64,000 nucleotides of DNA from assembly GCF_002261185.1 (NCBI RefSeq), contig NZ_NEVQ01000003.1:248001-312000 (forward strand), given 5' to 3'. Positions 16,301 to 28,379 of the stretch are shown in pieces. The translations under genes were made by a program, and so were the position numbers. The notes below the pieces were generated by a model that did not search any database, was not told the origin of the DNA, and was given only the letters and a program-made list of their open reading frames with translations. Within the stretch, counting starts at the first letter, position 1, and the number at the start of each line of letters is the position of its first letter. This stretch comes from Bordetella genomosp. 4. GTDB taxonomy: Bacteria > Pseudomonadota > Gammaproteobacteria > Burkholderiales > Burkholderiaceae_B.

Positions 16301-16470
16301 TGCGCCAGCCTCTGGGGGTGACGATCGTAGGTGGTCTGATCCTCAGCCAGATTTTGACGCTGTACACCACGCCTGTGGTCTATCTTTATCTGGACCGCTT
16401 CCGTTTATGGGCTCGCCGCCGTGCTGCACGTCGCACGATAGGCCCGCAACCTGATGTAGAACGCCAATAA
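13354..16470 (+). CDS. mdtC: RND efflux permease, second of two (MdtC/MuxC type)
   Basis: A 1038-residue RND permease that overlaps the previous gene by ATGA (13354-13357). It opens with [20 protein letters not shown], carries the TM4 motif [14 protein letters not shown] (about residue 400) and [11 protein letters not shown], and ends with the usual TM12 region. It is a clear paralogue of the preceding permease, as expected for a heteromeric pump. The overlaps imply translational coupling and balanced amounts of both subunits. Confidence 0.94.
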
Positions 16471-18011
16471 TGAGTCGCGCATCGTTTTCTTCTTTATCGC
16501 TTCGGTTTGGCCGAACGGCCGATGTACGCCTGTCGCGTTTGACTGTGGCCATGACGTGTTGCGCCCTGTTGGCCGCGTGCGCGGTGGGGCCGGATTATCA
16601 GCGTCCCGAGATCGATGTGGGCGAAGGGTATAGACAAGCTCAGGGTCAGGCGTCTGTACCATCCAGTTCTGGGATGCAGGGCGATGGCGCTCAGGCTCAA
16701 TCCCCCAATGGCGCCGTCCAGACTGACGGCTGGACTCCTGCGAAACCGAGGGACACGGTTGAGCGTGGCGCATGGTGGCAGATATATGGCGATACCACCC
16801 TGAATGGTCTGATGGACCAGCTGAACGCATCGAACCAAACCATCGTGCAAGCCGAGGCCAACTACAGGCAGGCACAGGCTCTGGTACGAGGCGCGCGCGC
16901 CAGTTTTTTCCCTACTGTAGGGACGAGTGCCGGCGCGACACGGTCGGGGTCGGGCAGCGGATCGACCAGCAGCACTGGCAATGATTACGACCTGAGTGCA
17001 TCGGTCAGTTGGGAGGTCGACATCTGGGGGCGAGTGCGTCGCCAGGTCGAGGCCAGCCGTGCTGAGGCCCAGGCCAGTTTTGCGGATTTGGCGAACACCC
17101 GGCTGAGTACGCAGTCGTCGCTCGCGCAAAACTATTTTCAATTGCGCGTGCTGGATGAGCAAAAGCGATTGCTGGAGTCGACGGTAGCCGCCTATGAGCG
17201 CTCGTTGAAATTGACGCAAAACCTCTATGACGCCGGCGTTGTCGGTAAATCGGATGTGACCGTGGCGTTGGCCCAATTGGAGGGCACGCGCGCCCAGTTG
17301 GTGGATCTGGAATGGCAGCGTGGTCAGTATGAGCATGCGATCGCCGTGCTGATCGGCTTGGCGCCCTCGCGCTTTACGCTGCCGGAGCAACCTTTCGCGC
17401 AGGTGATTCCGCAGATTCCTGTGGGATTGCCATCGCAATTGCTGGAGCGGCGTCCCGACGTCGCGTCGGCTGAGCGTTTGACGGCAGCAGCGAATGCCCA
17501 GATCGGTGTGGCGCAGTCGGCGTGGTTTCCCGATCTGACGTTAAGTGCCAATGGCGGATTTCGCAGCGGCGAGTTTGCGCAATGGCTGACGGCACCGGCG
17601 CGTTTCTGGTCCCTGGGGCCGGCGTTGGCGTTGACCTTGTTCGATGGCGGTGCCCGGCAGGCGCAATTGGAACAAGCCCGAGCAGCCTACGATGCCCAGG
17701 CCGCTGCGTATCGCCAGACAGTATTGAGCGCCTTGCAAGAGGTTGAAGACTATCTCATCCAATTGCGGGTGATGGGGCAAGAGCAGGTGGTGCAGCATCG
17801 GGCACTGGAAGCGGCGCGGGAGTCGTTGAGGTTGGCTCGGAATCAATATCGGGCTGGGACGATTGACTATCTGGATGTGGCCACGTTGGAAACGGGGGCA
17901 CTGAACAGCGAACGGACGGCGCTGACGTTGATGGCTAATCGGCTGACGGCTAGCGTGCAGTTGATTGCGGCGCTGGGTGGGGGATGGGAAGGGGGTGTTG
18001 CTGAGGAATGA
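16470..18011 (+). CDS. Outer-membrane efflux lipoprotein (OprM/NodT family)
   Basis: The 513-residue protein is the exit duct for the preceding pump. The signal peptide ends in LLAACAVGPDYQRP; Cys37 is the lipidation site. Residues about 100-300 and 310-500 form the two outer-membrane efflux protein repeats (for example SWEVDIWGRVRRQVEASRAEA and LLERRPDVASAERLTAAANA). Its ATG uses the last base of the permease stop (TAATG). The 3' end is unusually G-rich and the composite repeat element begins 9 bp after the stop codon. Confidence 0.93.
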   Translation: MSRASFSSLSLRFGRTADVRLSRLTVAMTCCALLAACAVGPDYQRPEIDVGEGYRQAQGQASVPSSSGMQGDGAQAQSPNGAVQTDGWTPAKPRDTVERGAWWQIYGDTTLNGLMDQLNASNQTIVQAEANYRQAQALVRGARASFFPTVGTSAGATRSGSGSGSTSSTGNDYDLSASVSWEVDIWGRVRRQVEASRAEAQASFADLANTRLSTQSSLAQNYFQLRVLDEQKRLLESTVAAYERSLKLTQNLYDAGVVGKSDVTVALAQLEGTRAQLVDLEWQRGQYEHAIAVLIGLAPSRFTLPEQPFAQVIPQIPVGLPSQLLERRPDVASAERLTAAANAQIGVAQSAWFPDLTLSANGGFRSGEFAQWLTAPARFWSLGPALALTLFDGGARQAQLEQARAAYDAQAAAYRQTVLSALQEVEDYLIQLRVMGQEQVVQHRALEAARESLRLARNQYRAGTIDYLDVATLETGALNSERTALTLMANRLTASVQLIAALGGGWEGGVAEE

Positions 18012-18046
18012 TGGCGTTGGTGCGTGAGGGTGGGGTTCTATTGGTC

Positions 18047-18094
18047 GTCGAGCCGAGGCAATCGGCCCGGCCGGGCCGATTGCCTCGGCTCGAC
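18047..18094. repeat. Perfect 48-bp palindrome (emptied left hairpin of copy 1)
   Basis: The 48 bases form a perfect palindrome with centre GCCCGGCCGGGC. In copy 2 the same arms (27507-27536 and 27639-27668) are 30 bp each and enclose a 102-bp module. The 12-bp centre occurs once in each arm of copy 2, so one recombination or slippage event between them would remove module plus one 12-mer and give exactly this palindrome. Confidence 0.85.
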
Positions 18095-18195
18095 TAGCGA
18101 CAACTAGAGCTCTCTGCACCGCTGGCACGACTGTCTTGCTTGGCGTTTTTCTGCAGCCGCGTTGGTATGGAGAAAGATCTTGCAGTGCGGCTTTC

Positions 18196-18218
18196 GGCGA
18201 GCGCCCTGCGCGCTCACC
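18196..18218. other. CCTGC-loop hairpin, left unit of copy 1
   Basis: GGCGAGCGC and GCGCTCACC (one C-A mismatch) enclose CCTGC. The right unit carries a hairpin with the same loop on the opposite strand but a different stem (18497-18531). The identical sequence occurs in copy 2. Confidence 0.6.
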
Positions 18219-18496
18219 TCAAGCGATCGGTCCGGGCATGCGACGGGGTGGCGTGGTGCTTGGTTGGAAGATCTGCTTGGCTGCGAGTGAGGCTTGCGGC
18301 GATGATGCGCAGGGCAGCTTTTCCGGCGGCGTATCTAGCATGCGCGTGCCCGGAATCAGCGTTCCTCGCCGCAGACATGATTTGCGCTCACCAGGAGCGC
18401 GCTACAACGAGTGCCATACGTGGCATTACGTCAATGTGACTCGAGAGATCTTTTGTCGAGTAACGGTGCCACAGCCTGTGCATGCAGATCCCGAAC

Positions 18497-18531
18497 GCGA
18501 TTCACGGGTGTGCAGGGCACCCGTGAATCGC
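18497..18531. other. 14-bp hairpin with CCCTGCA loop, right unit of copy 1
   Basis: GCGATTCACGGGTG (18497-18510) pairs perfectly with 18518-18531. In copy 2 (28073-28107) three stem positions differ; two of them changed on both sides and still pair. On the minus strand the loop reads CCCTGCA. Confidence 0.75.
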
Positions 18532-18656
18532 AGCCCTGCAAGATCTTTCTCTTCACCCAGGCTGATGCAAAAAAATGCCAAGCAAAAAAGCCGTGCCAGC
18601 GATGTGATGAGCTTGAGTTACTGCGAGTCGATGCGGGGCAGTGGCTGCGTGGGGGC

Positions 18657-18759
18657 GCCTCGTGGCCGAGTGGAGCGGACACCGTAGGGAGCGCGCAGGC
18701 GCGGACGAGGTGAGCGAACACGGTGTCCGGCGCGCAGGGCGCCGGACCGACCACGTGAA
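18657..18759. repeat. Insert module inside the right hairpin of copy 1
   Basis: A 103-bp module between perfect 30-bp arms. It has the fixed ends GCCTC and GTGAA, inside which lie 5-base complementary segments (GTGGC with ACCAC, one mismatch), and an inner hairpin GTCCGGCGC (18725-18733) with GCGCCGGAC (18739-18747). Related modules are at 28233-28334 and, reversed, 27537-27638. Confidence 0.8.
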
Positions 18760-18855
18760 GCCCCCACGCAGCCACTGCCCCGCATCGACGCCCATAAGCA
18801 CCAAACCCTCACACTCCAAGACACTCTACCTAAACAAACGACAACAAAACCCCCA

Positions 18856-19818
18856 CTAAATCAGCCCCCGAATCCCCGCAATGCCATGCGCCCCATGCCG
18901 GCGCGCCTCATCCAGGGTATCGACAGACTGCCCTCCCAGCGCATACACAGGCAGCCCGGCATCCCTATTGCCGGCAACAAAACCATCCCATCCCATACCA
19001 GCTTGCCCCGGATGCGAAGGTGTTTCCAACACTGCTCCCAGCACAGCAAAATCCGCGCCCATTTCGCGCGCATGTACGATCTGTGCATTGTCGTGGGCTG
19101 ACACGCCGACTAAAGCGCCTTCGGGCAACTCCGGCCGCGTATGTAACGCCGCTGCATCGTTCGTGCGTAAATGCACCCCGTCGGCCTGACGCCACCAGGC
19201 TGCAGGATGCGCGCTGTTGATCAGCACACGAGCACCCGCAGCGTGGCACAGTTTGACGATGGTCTGCACGGCGTCGCGCAGCGATGTGGCTCCAGGGCCA
19301 TCAGGCCAATCCGGTTCACGGACTTGTACGAGCTTCAGGCCTCGTGCCAGCGCACGCTCCAGGCGCTCGAGAAATGCGGGCAACCCCGCACGCCCGCCGA
19401 TGGACGTGATGCCATAAGCGTTGGGCAACTGCAGCCAACGCAACGGCGGCAGGGTGGCTGGCAGCAGATCGCCGACACTCGACGCCTCGGCGGGATTGAC
19501 CCACTCCAGGCGTTGATTTTCCAGACTGCGCGGCTCGCCTTTCCAGCCGGTGACTTGGCAAAATGCCAGCCGAACGGTGGTGTGAGGATAGGCGTGCACA
19601 TAAGTCACCCACGGCACCGCCTGCGTGACTTCGATACCGATTTCTTCTTGCAGCTCGCGCGCCAATGCTTGCAGCACGGTCTCGCCGGGCTCGAGTTTGC
19701 CGCCGGGCAGTTCCCACCAGCCCGCCCAAGGTTTGCCCTCGGGCCGTTGTCCCAGCAGGAGTTGGCCGTCGGGCCGCAGAATCAGGCCCGCAGCGACGTC
19801 TATGATGCCGTCAGACAT
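18856..19818 (-). CDS. Nudix hydrolase fused to a ThiE-like domain (MutT family)
   Basis: The 320-residue protein begins with a Nudix domain of the MutT type (box G40 to I62, GGKLEPGETVLQALARELQE... with the R-E-x-x-E-E metal-binding core), which cleaves oxidised or other nucleoside diphosphate derivatives such as 8-oxo-dGTP. Residues about 150-320 are a thiamine-phosphate-synthase-like barrel (ARGLKLVQVREPDWPD, VLINSA, GVHLRTND, GVSAHD, VLGAVLETPSHPG). This fusion is widespread in proteobacteria; the second domain need not be a true ThiE, and a separate thiE lies at 43761-44456. The start at 19818 overlaps the end of the DUF815 gene by 8 bp. The 3' end faces the composite repeat. Confidence 0.9.
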   Translation of the reverse strand: MSDGIIDVAAGLILRPDGQLLLGQRPEGKPWAGWWELPGGKLEPGETVLQALARELQEEIGIEVTQAVPWVTYVHAYPHTTVRLAFCQVTGWKGEPRSLENQRLEWVNPAEASSVGDLLPATLPPLRWLQLPNAYGITSIGGRAGLPAFLERLERALARGLKLVQVREPDWPDGPGATSLRDAVQTIVKLCHAAGARVLINSAHPAAWWRQADGVHLRTNDAAALHTRPELPEGALVGVSAHDNAQIVHAREMGADFAVLGAVLETPSHPGQAGMGWDGFVAGNRDAGLPVYALGGQSVDTLDEARRHGAHGIAGIRGLI

Positions 19819-20677
19819 GGCGTGCCGCCCAATCGCGGGCAAATTGATACGCCACCCGGCCCGAGCGTGAGCCGCGTTCCAGCGCCCATTGCAACGCCTC
19901 CGTGCGGCTGGACTCGATCTGATCCGCGGGGCAGTTCAATTCCTCCAGCCAGTGATACACGATATCCAGATAGTCATCCTGTTTGAACGGATGAAATGAC
20001 AGCCACAGCCCGAAACGCTCGGACAGCGAGATTTTTTCCTCGACGGTTTCGCCCGGATGAATCTCGCCATCGGCCTGGTGCTTGGCCTGCAGGTTTTCGC
20101 TCATGTATTCCGGCATCAAGTGACGCCGGTTGGACGTCGCATAGATCAGCACGTTGTCGCCCGATGCCGACACCGAGCCATCCAGCACTGATTTCAGGGC
20201 CTTGTAGCCGGCTTCGCCTTCCTCGAAAGACAGGTCGTCGCAGAACACGATATAGCGTTCGGGACGCGCCGCGACCAGCTCGACGATGTCGGCCAGATCG
20301 CCCAGGTCGGATTTGTCGACCTCGATCAAACGCAGCCCTTGGTCGCCATAGGCGGCCAGCATGGCCTTGACGAGCGAGCTCTTGCCCGTGCCGCGCGCGC
20401 CGGTCATCAGCACATTGTTGGCCGGCTTTTTCTGCAGAAATTGACGTGTGTTCCGGTCGATGATGCCCTTCTGGCGTTCGATGTGCTGCAGATCGGTCAT
20501 GTCGATGCGGGCGACATGCCGCACGGCATCCAGCCAGCCGCGTGCACCGCGTTTGCGCCAGCGGTAGGCATGGGCGGACCAATCAATCTCGGGCGGTGCG
20601 GCGGGCAGCCAGGCTTCGAGCTGGGCCAGCACGCGTTCGGCACGTTCGATCAGAACGGAAAAATCAGCAGCACTCAC
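19811..20677 (-). CDS. DUF815 family AAA ATPase
   Basis: A 288-residue cytoplasmic ATPase with Walker A GARGTGKS (residues 93-100) and a Walker B-like IVFCDDLSF. An N-terminal segment of about 85 residues precedes the ATPase core, and LIYATSNRRHLMPE follows as a sensor-like strand. DUF815 proteins are conserved in bacteria next to argJ and mutT in betaproteobacteria; their role is not established. The gene is probably cotranscribed with the Nudix-ThiE gene, with which it overlaps. Confidence 0.88.
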   Translation of the reverse strand: MSAADFSVLIERAERVLAQLEAWLPAAPPEIDWSAHAYRWRKRGARGWLDAVRHVARIDMTDLQHIERQKGIIDRNTRQFLQKKPANNVLMTGARGTGKSSLVKAMLAAYGDQGLRLIEVDKSDLGDLADIVELVAARPERYIVFCDDLSFEEGEAGYKALKSVLDGSVSASGDNVLIYATSNRRHLMPEYMSENLQAKHQADGEIHPGETVEEKISLSERFGLWLSFHPFKQDDYLDIVYHWLEELNCPADQIESSRTEALQWALERGSRSGRVAYQFARDWAARHV

Positions 20678-27448: not shown

Positions 27449-27536
27449 AAAGGGGCGGTGTCGGAGAGTGGTCGTGGTTTTGCGTGAGGGTGGGGTTCTG
27501 ATGGTCGTCGAGCCGAGGCAATCGGCCCGGCCGGGC

Positions 27537-27638
27537 TTCACAAAGTCGGTCCGGCGCGCGGGCGCCGGACATCGTGTTCGCTCGTCTCGTCCGCGCCTGC
27601 GCGCTCCCTTCGACGTCCGCTCCACTCGACTTTGAGGC
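27537..27638. repeat. Insert module in the left hairpin of copy 2
   Basis: A 102-bp module, reversed relative to those in the right hairpins but in the same direction relative to its own unit. Read on the minus strand its variable 5-base ends are AAAGT and ACTTT, perfectly complementary. It keeps the inner GTCCGGCGC/GCGCCGGAC hairpin. Confidence 0.8.
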
Positions 27639-28072
27639 GCCCGGCCGGGCCGATTGCCTCGGCTCGACTAGCGGCAACTAGAATTCTCTGCACCGCTGGC
27701 ACGGCTTTCTTGCTTGGCGTTTTTTCGCAGCCGCATTGGTAAAGAGAAAAATCTTACGGTGCTGCTTTCGGCGAGCGCCCTGCGCGCTCACCTCAAGCTA
27801 TCGGTCCGGGCATGCGACGGGGTGGCGTGGTGCCTGGTTGGAAGATCTGCTTGGCCGTGAGTGAGGCTCGCAGCGATGATGCACAGGGCAGTTTTTCCGG
27901 CGGTATATCCGTAGCATGTCCGTGCTCTGAATTAGAGTTCCTCGCCGCAGACATGATCTGAGCTCAACACGATCGCAACATAACCATTGCCATGCGTGGC
28001 ATTACGTCAATGTGACTCGAGAGATCTTTTGTTGAGTAACGGTGCCACAGCCTGTGCATGCAGATCCCGAAC

Positions 28073-28107
28073 GCGATGAGCGGGTGTGCAGGGCACCCGG
28101 TCATCGC
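28073..28107. other. 14-bp hairpin with CCCTGCA loop, right unit of copy 2
   Basis: GCGATGAGCGGGTG (28073-28086) pairs with 28094-28107 except for one G-G mismatch. Two of the pairs are swapped relative to copy 1 with pairing kept. Confidence 0.7.
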
Positions 28108-28232
28108 AGCCCTGCAAGATCTTTCTCTTCACCCAGGCTGATGCAGAAGAATGCCAAGCAAAAAAGCCGTGCCAGCGATGTGATGAGCTTGAGTTACTGC
28201 GAGTCGATGCGGGGCAGTGGCTGCGTGGGGGC

Positions 28233-28334
28233 GCCTCGTTGGCGAGCGGAGTGGATGTCGAAGGGAGCGCGCAGGCGCGGACGAGACGAACGAACGCGGT
28301 GTCCGGCGCCCGCGCGCCGGACCGCCAACGTGAA
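28233..28334. repeat. Insert module in the right hairpin of copy 2
   Basis: A 102-bp module with fixed ends GCCTC and GTGAA. The variable ends are GTTGG and CCAAC, perfectly complementary but different from those of the other two modules. Confidence 0.8.
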
Positions 28335-28379
28335 GCCCCCACGCAGCCACTGCCCCGCATCGACGTCCAATAGCACTAA

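What the first reader, a model, noticed from the sequence alone, without database searches (positions are those of the whole stretch)
18021..18810. Composite inverted-repeat element of about 0.8 kb, built from two inverted units around a unique centre
The region between the convergent efflux lipoprotein and Nudix genes is one elaborate structure. Left and right halves are inverted copies without gaps: arm (30 bp, 19 matches), spacer (25 bp, 14 matches), then a 72-bp block (18120-18191 and 18530-18601, 58 matches). The outer flanks also match in inverted form. The centre has no inverted partner. No frame is conserved and no transposase is present. It is larger and more layered than REP, ERIC or ordinary MITE elements known to me, and I do not recognise it.
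Basis: seen in the sequence. Interest (0 to 1): 0.85.

Follow-up and report, generated by a model that had tools for sequence, protein, structure and literature searches.

The report
Giant repeated DNA hairpins scarring neighbours
The 0.8-kb mirror-image sequence belongs to a family of giant DNA hairpins, found dozens of times in its genome between converging genes and apparently undescribed, and the DNA beside these hairpins has lost C on one strand in a fading gradient, as if they were places where the chromosome breaks and is repaired again and again.

Summary
The element (18036-18800) is one of 40 places, at least 38 copies, in its genome; 25 of 29 copies with both flanks visible lie between convergent genes. 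It is a truncated copy: undeleted A copies are about 0.9 kb, with 16-bp terminal inverted motifs, a hairpin of about 165 bp at each end and inner hairpins whose stems change with compensation. One full copy folds as a giant hairpin (-555 kcal/mol as RNA, z -18.9). Relatives occur in the genus (Bordetella-like; inferred) and in other Alcaligenaceae. The gene pair lacks it in relatives (63 bp between stops in G007).

New here: flanking DNA carries a strand-asymmetric gradient. Read toward the element from either side, GC skew falls from +0.68 to near background within about 1 kb; C is lost by C>T and C>G. It recurs in a second genus, is low at empty orthologous sites and short palindromes, and appears where the neighbouring gene points away. 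This resembles the published signature at meiotic DNA breaks.

Best reading: recurrent breakage or single-strand exposure at giant palindromes (inferred). How copies are inserted is unknown.

The parts
18036..18800 (.). whole element, window copy (A subfamily, internally deleted)
   Evidence: terminal motifs at both ends; alignment with 9 other A copies; genome search
18036..18051 (+). left terminal inverted motif TTCTATTGGTCGTCGA
18785..18800 (-). right terminal inverted motif TGCTTATGGGCGTCGA (on - strand)
18047..18094 (.). collapsed left end hairpin: perfect 24+24-bp palindrome; 8 of 9 other aligned A copies hold about 115 bp more here (L009 has lost it too)
   Evidence: (I3)
18627..18790 (.). 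right end hairpin unit (about 165 bp)
   Evidence: sequence, (I2), fold
18120..18191 (+). 72-bp inner block, left
   Evidence: 58/72 with the right block
18530..18601 (-). 72-bp inner block, right, inverted
18199..18215 (.). inner hairpin 1, stem exchanged with compensation between copies
18497..18531 (.). inner hairpin 2, near-constant loop and compensated variable stem
   Evidence: (I7)
17836..18035 (+). left flank with inward G/T-rich, C-poor strand, including the 3' end of the efflux gene
   Evidence: skew +0.50 over 10-150 bp
18801..19000 (-). right flank, the same gradient on the - strand, including the 3' end of the Nudix/ThiE gene
   Evidence: skew +0.51
16470..18011 (+). outer membrane efflux protein gene (PF02321), convergent neighbour
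18856..19842 (-). Nudix + thiamine monophosphate synthase fusion gene, convergent neighbour
27496..28375 (+). second, full-length A copy in the same window (G000:C19:275.5-276.4 kb)
   Evidence: flank skew +0.64/+0.49

Best explanation
A multi-copy, non-coding giant-palindrome element: 16-bp terminal inverted motifs, a hairpin of about 165 bp at each end, inner hairpins and a centre; two-arm copies away from contig ends measure 0.78-0.92 kb. It is tolerated or placed mostly between convergent genes. SHOWN: family, anatomy, location, empty and filled orthologous sites, stem compensation, and a strand-specific loss of C (C>T, C>G), with a few A>G, in the flanks, which fades over about 0.5-1 kb and exists on both sides in mirror orientation. 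INFERRED: the inverted halves fold into a hairpin or cruciform during replication; the structure is cut or blocks the fork; 5' strands are resected on both sides; the exposed 3'-ended strands (exactly the inward-reading strands) suffer cytosine and some adenine damage that is fixed by copying or translesion synthesis. Repeated over evolutionary time this makes the gradient. Repair or template switching between arms and between copies would also keep stems paired and copies within a genome alike. How new copies are inserted is not known.
For: 40 places, at least 38 copies, in the genome. 25 of 29 fully flanked copies convergent, against 18 of 171 other gene pairs in the same loci and 12 of 54 in the window. 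Gradient over 64 ends: GC skew +0.68, +0.44, +0.39, +0.27, +0.24, +0.15, +0.10, falling to about +0.03 beyond 700 bp; 108 control gene 3' ends are near flat; per-end test p = 1.8e-17. Second genus: 6 two-arm elements of G013, +0.58, +0.56, +0.38, +0.37, +0.26, with near-flat controls. Gene-direction test: 8 ends whose neighbour points away (all 8 genes with Pfam hits) show +0.75, +0.47, +0.41, +0.23, +0.14, then about 0. Orthologous genes: higher skew where the element or another large palindrome is present than where absent. Polarised third positions within 150 bp: C changed 55 of 62 (C>T 27, C>G 24), A>G 4 of 4, G changed 7 of 47. Length dependence: palindromes under 60 bp near 0, at least 400 bp 0.21-0.54. 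Published precedent for spectrum and strand sense at human meiotic breaks (PMC7615360, passages). A Mre11/Rad50-like gene pair is encoded.
Against: No break, single-strand or repair data exist here; the mechanism is read from composition. Curated SbcC and SbcD cut-offs are not reached; the Mre11/Rad50-like pair is distant. Skew is weaker and shorter in other same-genus genomes (31 ends: +0.40, +0.24, +0.17, +0.16, +0.07), and four relatives with an element at the g190 site have only 0.13-0.24 in the last 100 coding bases and negative values at 100-300. At ends pointing away the skew at 100-200 bp rests on three of eight ends (L093R, L241L, L241R), and L075L is near zero or negative from 50 to 150 bp, whereas at ends pointing in it reaches about 500 bp, so transcription may add to it. 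Some copies show no skew inside the neighbouring gene (L056_L +0.02, L059_R -0.16, L073_L -0.11, L086_L -0.25, L090_L -0.15). On the side where a one-arm copy shows no terminal motif the skew is +0.03 (5 ends). Two of six palindromes of at least 400 bp in G002 average under 0.1; relatives with palindromes of 103 or 136 bp farther off (L244, L246) show 0.13 and 0.01. Parsimony rests on 4 genes and few A sites.
Confidence: 0.55

Rival explanations
1. Transcription-coupled damage: RNA polymerase runs into the giant hairpin, R-loops form, and the displaced non-template strand is deaminated.
For: Most flanking genes point at the element and there the gradient is longest.
Against: At 8 ends whose neighbouring gene points away the inward strand is the template strand, yet it is on average the C-poor one. 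First 50 codons of those 8 genes, third positions pooled: G 0.25, C 0.43, A 0.22, T 0.11, against G 0.31, C 0.34, A 0.14, T 0.21 in 136 control genes.
Confidence: 0.2
2. Selection: the element is a two-way transcription barrier, and the C-rich outward strand of the flanks is kept as Rho-utilisation sequence that stops antisense transcripts leaving the element.
For: Convergent placement (25 of 29) and C-rich, G-poor outward strand. Strong RNA fold.
Against: The gradient fades smoothly over about 0.5 kb and acts at wobble positions; Rho sites are about 80 nt (recalled). Skew rises with palindrome length and accompanies palindromes without sequence match in G002 and G007.
Confidence: 0.15
3. Insertion preference: elements land in sequence that was already G/T-rich.
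For: Filled sites in this genome have G/T-rich borders on average.
Against: Orthologous gene ends at empty sites are mostly not G/T-rich: G007 and G002 at sites L082, L083, L084 (-0.20 to +0.23), seven relatives at the Nudix gene (-0.06 to 0.17) and seven at the LivF gene (0.01-0.24).
Confidence: 0.05
4. Ordinary large MITE: non-autonomous transposon moved by a host transposase through the 16-bp ends, with the gradient an unrelated by-product of its sites.
For: Terminal inverted motifs, multi-copy, lineage-specific filled and empty sites.
Against: No target-site duplication seen by eye; no Y1 transposase in the genome; no coding copy noticed among those examined. Other transposases with these ends were not searched for.
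Confidence: 0.3

Closest known systems
REP / BIME / REPIN with RAYT
   Same: Palindromic, intergenic, repeated, two inverted units; one relative (G006) carries short palindromic repeats plus a Y1-transposase-like frame (read by eye) between this very gene pair.
   Different: REPs are 20-40 bp (PMC3733652, abstract and passages); this is about 0.9 kb. No Y1 transposase match in the genome. The GTGTCWGACAC core is absent from the window and 305 kb of flanks.
Bacterial MITEs (NEMIS/Correia, ERIC, RUP, YPAL)
   Same: Terminal inverted motifs, no gene found, folds strongly.
   Different: MITEs are 70-300 bp (PMC3733652, passages); no TSD seen here.
Caulobacter CIR intergenic repeats
   Same: Two long inverted arms joined by a linker (PMC2229807, passages).
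   Different: Listed there among elements of about 100-200 bp; methylation-site motif not examined here.
BRE, the 90-bp Beta-proteobacterial repeat of Bordetella; stem-loop families Bor-1 and Bor-2
   Same: Repeated, intergenic, structured or GC-rich, Bordetella.
   Different: BRE is 75-91 bp, often tandem (PMC3110155, passages); Bor-2 is a 167-bp model with 17 copies (PMC2267715, passages).
Mutation footprint of meiotic double-strand breaks in humans
   Same: C>N and A>N on the forward strand of one flank and the complement on the other, with C>G, C>T and A>G (PMC7615360, passages).
   Different: Programmed breaks in a eukaryote, flanks of 2 kb; here a bacterium, at palindromes, over about 0.5 kb.

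Membership tests
REP/REPIN (RAYT-mobilised) | short (20-40 bp) palindromic unit | tested here: not met
   end units of about 165 bp, two-arm copies 0.78-0.92 kb
REP/REPIN (RAYT-mobilised) | RAYT (Y1) transposase in genome | tested here: not met
   PF01797: 0 matches in own genome, 5 of 14 control genomes positive
MITE | terminal inverted repeats | tested here: met
   16-bp motif matched with up to 3 edits at 64 ends with at least 300 bp of flank; a few of these matches look spurious (e.g. L072 right, L088 right)
MITE | target-site duplication | tested here: inconclusive
   none visible by eye in the flanks printed; flanks may be too mutated
MITE | related autonomous transposon | not tested
   only the Y1 family was searched
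MITE | size 70-300 bp | tested here: not met
   21 two-arm copies away from contig ends, 0.78-0.92 kb
BRE | 75-91 bp repeat of given sequence | not testable with these tools
   sequence not in the text seen; size and layout differ
Rfam RNA family | gathering-score match | tested here: not met
   0 matches in window
DNA-break hotspot (works like) | mirror-image strand-asymmetric C>N and A>N flanks | tested here: met
   the A>N part rests on few sites
DNA-break hotspot (works like) | physical breaks or RecA loading | not testable with these tools
   needs END-seq or ChIP-seq

The most novel reading that the evidence does not exclude
Bacterial chromosomes in this family carry dozens of natural break-and-repair hotspots: giant palindromes between convergent genes that break or go single-stranded so regularly that the exposed 3' strands of the flanking genes have been stripped of cytosine for hundreds of base pairs. 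Palindromes longer than about 400 bp tend to do this whatever their sequence, and repair from other copies keeps the family alike.
Probability: 0.42. Interest if true: 0.9.

Novelty: new variant of a known kind. Interest (0 to 1): 0.77.

Why it matters
Long palindromes are known in the laboratory to be broken or lost in E. coli (recalled; listing). Here a wild genome keeps dozens of imperfect giant ones, and their flanks appear to record their history as base composition. If right, it gives a sequence-only read-out of natural DNA-break hotspots in bacteria, ties a human germ-line mutation signature to a bacterial process, and shows that repeats can reshape the coding ends of their neighbours. 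It also bears on assembly: 11 of the 46 contig ends of this genome lie in or within 200 bp of a copy.

Tried and rejected
Known-family route: Rfam gathering, blastn in plasmids and phages, viral contigs by core pattern: nothing. RAYT mobilisation: no Y1 family match. Canonical SbcCD: SbcC best hit is 40 bits, in a 1184-aa frame (probably Smc, recalled), SbcD 46 bits, both under the cut-offs; a distant Mre11/Rad50-like pair was found instead. Target-site duplications: none seen by eye. Coding: ORFs in the element are overlapping frames through hairpins; no family test was run on them. RNA-level function: stem compensation is strong (18 cells changed on both sides, covariation 0.491 against 0.112 shuffled), but only one G-U cell and three unpaired cells occur among 108 in 9 distinct rows, which fits DNA copying between arms better than RNA selection (inference). 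The core-pattern scan gave 20 stretches; six (three actinobacteria, one Gemmatimonadetes, one Methylobacterium, one Gemmiger) are taken as chance hairpins, and none of the 20 was examined further. The g208 orthologues were left out of the parsimony for low identity. Gene calls are by longest-ORF greedy choice; L060_L, L061_L and L070_R were judged by eye to be miscalls and dropped from the pointing-away set of nine; of the nine pointing-away ends I kept only the two of L241, because L226_L, L232_L and L160_L read as convergent and the other four do not lie at a clear element end. Copy number: clustering used the larger rows only, whose list was cut off; a late check found that of the 11 contig-end places only L071 could be the other half of a listed copy, hence at least 38. 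An earlier count said 7 two-arm copies in G013; one search shows 6. A Pfam scan of the 36-aa frame inserted in two copies gave nothing.

Full report
WHAT IS THERE. The window copy runs from 18036 to 18800, between inward-facing terminal motifs TTCTATTGGTCGTCGA and TGCTTATGGGCGTCGA. It folds at -484 kcal/mol as RNA against -352 +/- 7 for 20 shuffles. A full copy (L006) folds at -555 kcal/mol as RNA (z -18.9) and at -305 kcal/mol as DNA (z -15.6), nearly end to end.

FAMILY. A search of the window's own genome (5.53 Mb, 23 contigs) gave 162 matching pieces; clustering the larger listed rows gives 40 places, 29 internal and 11 at contig ends. Of the 11, only L071 could be the other half of a listed copy, so there are at least 38 copies; the list was cut. 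Eleven rows match most of the window copy: the copy itself and ten at 87-94%, one of them cut by a contig end. Comparison of copies shows two subfamilies, A and B. Two-arm copies away from contig ends, 21 in number, span 0.78-0.92 kb, undeleted A copies 0.89-0.92 kb; eight one-arm copies span 0.32-0.46 kb. Alignment of ten A copies shows the anatomy: terminal motif, end hairpin, 72-bp block, inner hairpin, centre, inner hairpin, inverted block, end hairpin, terminal motif. The window copy and L009 have lost most of the left end hairpin. A second, full A copy lies in the window at 27496-28375.

COMPENSATED STEMS. The inner hairpins occur with near-constant loops and many different stems that remain paired: 22 distinct sequences among 56 finds (the finds include both inner hairpins). 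On the 9 distinct 31-base forms, 97.2% of cells pair against 77.5% shuffled, 18 cells change on both sides against 6.0, and the covariation score is 0.491 against 0.112. Only one cell is G-U, so I infer copying of one arm from the other at DNA level rather than RNA selection.

DISTRIBUTION. Among 61 genomes (own included), 16 match at E <= 0.001: 9 of 9 of the genus (two of them, G001 and G004, by one weak match each), 6 others in the same family and one marginal match (E 6.8e-4) in another family (at most 8 candidates per genome were scored). A scan of 84,980 species genomes with the core hairpin pattern gave 20 stretches, including Bordetella sp. 02P26C-1 (contig lengths equal to G007), Allopusillimonas ginsengisoli, two Pollutimonas, Candidimonas, and a MAG labelled B. 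parapertussis. The window genus is therefore Bordetella or close to it (inference). A closed genome of another genus (G013) has 11 places, 6 of them two-arm, 0.74-1.08 kb. No match in phage, plasmid or viral collections.

WHERE IT SITS. Of 40 places, 29 have both flanking genes visible. The greedy gene call gives 23 convergent; two more (L060, L061) are convergent on reading the sequence, so 25 of 29. Background is 18 of 171 other neighbouring pairs in the same loci, or 12 of 54 greedy pairs in the window, some of them miscalls. Of the 11 places at contig ends 9 have the visible gene pointing at them. In G013, 5 of 6 two-arm copies are between convergent genes.

FILLED AND EMPTY SITES. At the window site G007 has 63 bp between the two stop codons and no element; G002 has 137 bp. 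G008 and G005 have short palindromic repeats there and G006 has such repeats around a Y1-transposase-like frame (my reading); in G003 and G004 another gene lies there. So this gene junction repeatedly takes up palindromic repeats. Another junction (g190, L080) holds an element in G000, G002, G003, G005 and G008 and none in G001, G004, G006 and G007, apart from a 44-bp match in G004. There the G002 copy is nearer to the G003 copy at the same site (81% over 476 bp) than to another G002 copy (77% over 277 bp), so it is old there; but the G000 copy is 94% like a G000 copy at another site and only 71% over 175 bp like G002's. That means homogenisation or replacement within G000.

THE GRADIENT. Reading toward the element from either side, over 64 ends: GC skew +0.68 (0-25 bp), +0.44, +0.39, +0.27, +0.24 (100-150), +0.15, +0.10 (200-300), +0.07, +0.08, +0.05 (500-700), +0.03, and +0.01 to +0.03 beyond 1 kb; T-over-A skew +0.28 falling likewise. 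The first 15-20 bp may belong to the element. Controls, measured back from stop codons: 108 gene 3' ends more than 1.5 kb from a copy give +0.09, +0.06, +0.04, -0.01, +0.02. The 24 convergent gene ends of the window were also near flat, though that set included ends of spurious frames in or beside the elements. Per end, 25-200 bp: mean 0.264 (64 ends) against 0.022 (95 control ends, maximum 0.22), p = 1.8e-17. By class: A 0.325 (21), B and contig-end copies 0.202 (32), one-arm copies on a side with a terminal-motif match 0.326 (11) and on a side without 0.032 (5). Second genus, two-arm copies: +0.58, +0.56, +0.38, +0.37, +0.26, +0.17, +0.16, with 33 control ends near flat (+0.12 in the first 25 bp, then about 0); one-arm copies pooled show none. 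Other same-genus genomes: weaker, +0.40, +0.24, +0.17, +0.16, +0.07 over 31 ends, and a mixed set of nine pointing-away calls +0.20, +0.07, +0.30, +0.21.

ORTHOLOGUE TEST. In five flanking genes compared across the genus, last 100 coding bases: Nudix own 0.31, seven relatives without the element -0.06 to 0.17; LivF own 0.63, seven without 0.01-0.24, G007 (whose contig ends there) 0.48; LivG own 0.52, six without 0.07-0.18, while G007 and G002 have other large palindromes there, with no match to this family, and 0.43 and 0.30; g190 own 0.53, four relatives with it 0.13-0.24, four without -0.09 to 0.07; g208 own 0.66, eight without 0.11-0.23. In one search empty sites of G007 and G002 range from -0.20 to +0.24, and the G007 site that shares the element with L081 gives +0.41 and +0.33. 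(LivF and LivG are recalled names for ABC-transporter ATPases.)

SPECTRUM. With element-free relatives as outgroup and four genes, third positions within 150 bp of the stop: C>T 27, C>G 24, C>A 4 of 62 C; A>G 4 of 4; G changed 7 of 47. At 450-1000 bp: C changed 61 of 133, G 36 of 121. With element-free relatives as focal, within 150 bp: C>T 23, C>G 37, C>A 1 of 317 C; G changed 35 of 227. So C on the inward strand is nearly erased next to the element while G is spared.

GENE DIRECTION. Eight ends have a neighbour pointing away (6 in G000, 2 in G007), all eight genes with Pfam hits. They show +0.75, +0.47, +0.41, +0.23, +0.14, -0.01, +0.04; one end (L075 left) is near zero or negative from 50 to 150 bp, and at 100-200 bp three ends carry most of the signal. 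In their first 50 codons third positions are poor in G and rich in A and C against 136 control genes. So the affected strand follows the element, not the coding strand, though the reach is shorter than at ends pointing in.

LENGTH. In 400 kb of G002, 360 kb of G007 and the window, palindromes under 60 bp have mean inward skew -0.009 (34), 0.007 (25) and -0.006 (2); 60-150 bp 0.054 (10) and 0.034 (2); 150-400 bp 0.040 (3, G002); at least 400 bp 0.208 (6), 0.372 (1) and 0.536 (2). G002's six include family and other palindromes, and two of them average under 0.1.

MECHANISM. A break inside the element followed by 5' resection leaves on the left the + strand and on the right the - strand single: exactly the C-poor strands. 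PMC7615360 (passages) reports at human meiotic breaks C>N and A>N on the forward strand of one flank and the complement on the other, with C>G, C>T and A>G attributed to deamination and translesion synthesis. The agreement in strand sense and spectrum is why I prefer this reading to R-loops or selection. Whether breaks, stalled forks or cruciform processing expose the strand is not known. The genome encodes a Mre11/Rad50-like pair (371 and 876 aa) but no SbcC or SbcD over the curated cut-offs.

PRIOR WORK. Searches listed no paper that I recognised as describing such an element or gradient; the library lacks most subscription journals. Papers seen in passages: PMC3110155, PMC3733652, PMC2267715, PMC2229807, PMC7615360; in listing with start of abstract only: PMC4245961, PMC3315005, PMC2817692, PMC3116915.

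Noticed in passing
window 27496-28375: A second full-length copy of the family, between a LivF-like gene and a flavin oxidoreductase gene in the same direction, one of the few non-convergent copies.
   Followed up: yes
L055:1-195 and L069:4704-4828: Two B copies are interrupted at the same spot of an end hairpin by the same foreign sequence (99.5% over 190 bp) that opens a frame resembling an IS110-type transposase start (by eye, recalled; Pfam scan of 36 aa empty).
   Followed up: partly
L116 (G006), between the orthologues of the window's two genes: Array of 33-bp GTGTCAGACACC palindromes around a Y1-transposase-like frame (read by eye) at the same gene junction.
   Followed up: partly
L253 (G007) and L257 (G002), downstream of LivG: Other large palindromes, with no match to this family, also accompanied by inward G/T skew.
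   Followed up: partly
G000 contigs C1, C3, C4, C9, C10, C14, C15, C17, C21: 11 of 46 contig ends lie in or within 200 bp of a copy.
   Followed up: partly
L208, L209, L211, L214 (G013): One-arm copies, some beside short tandem repeats, without the flank gradient when both sides are pooled.
   Followed up: no
L222:1394-5207 (G000 C16): Distant Mre11/Rad50-like pair (371 and 876 aa), below the SbcCD cut-offs.
   Followed up: partly
L093:4521-4940 and L241:4727-5137: Related cupin genes in two species each have an element just upstream and a G-poor coding strand.
   Followed up: partly
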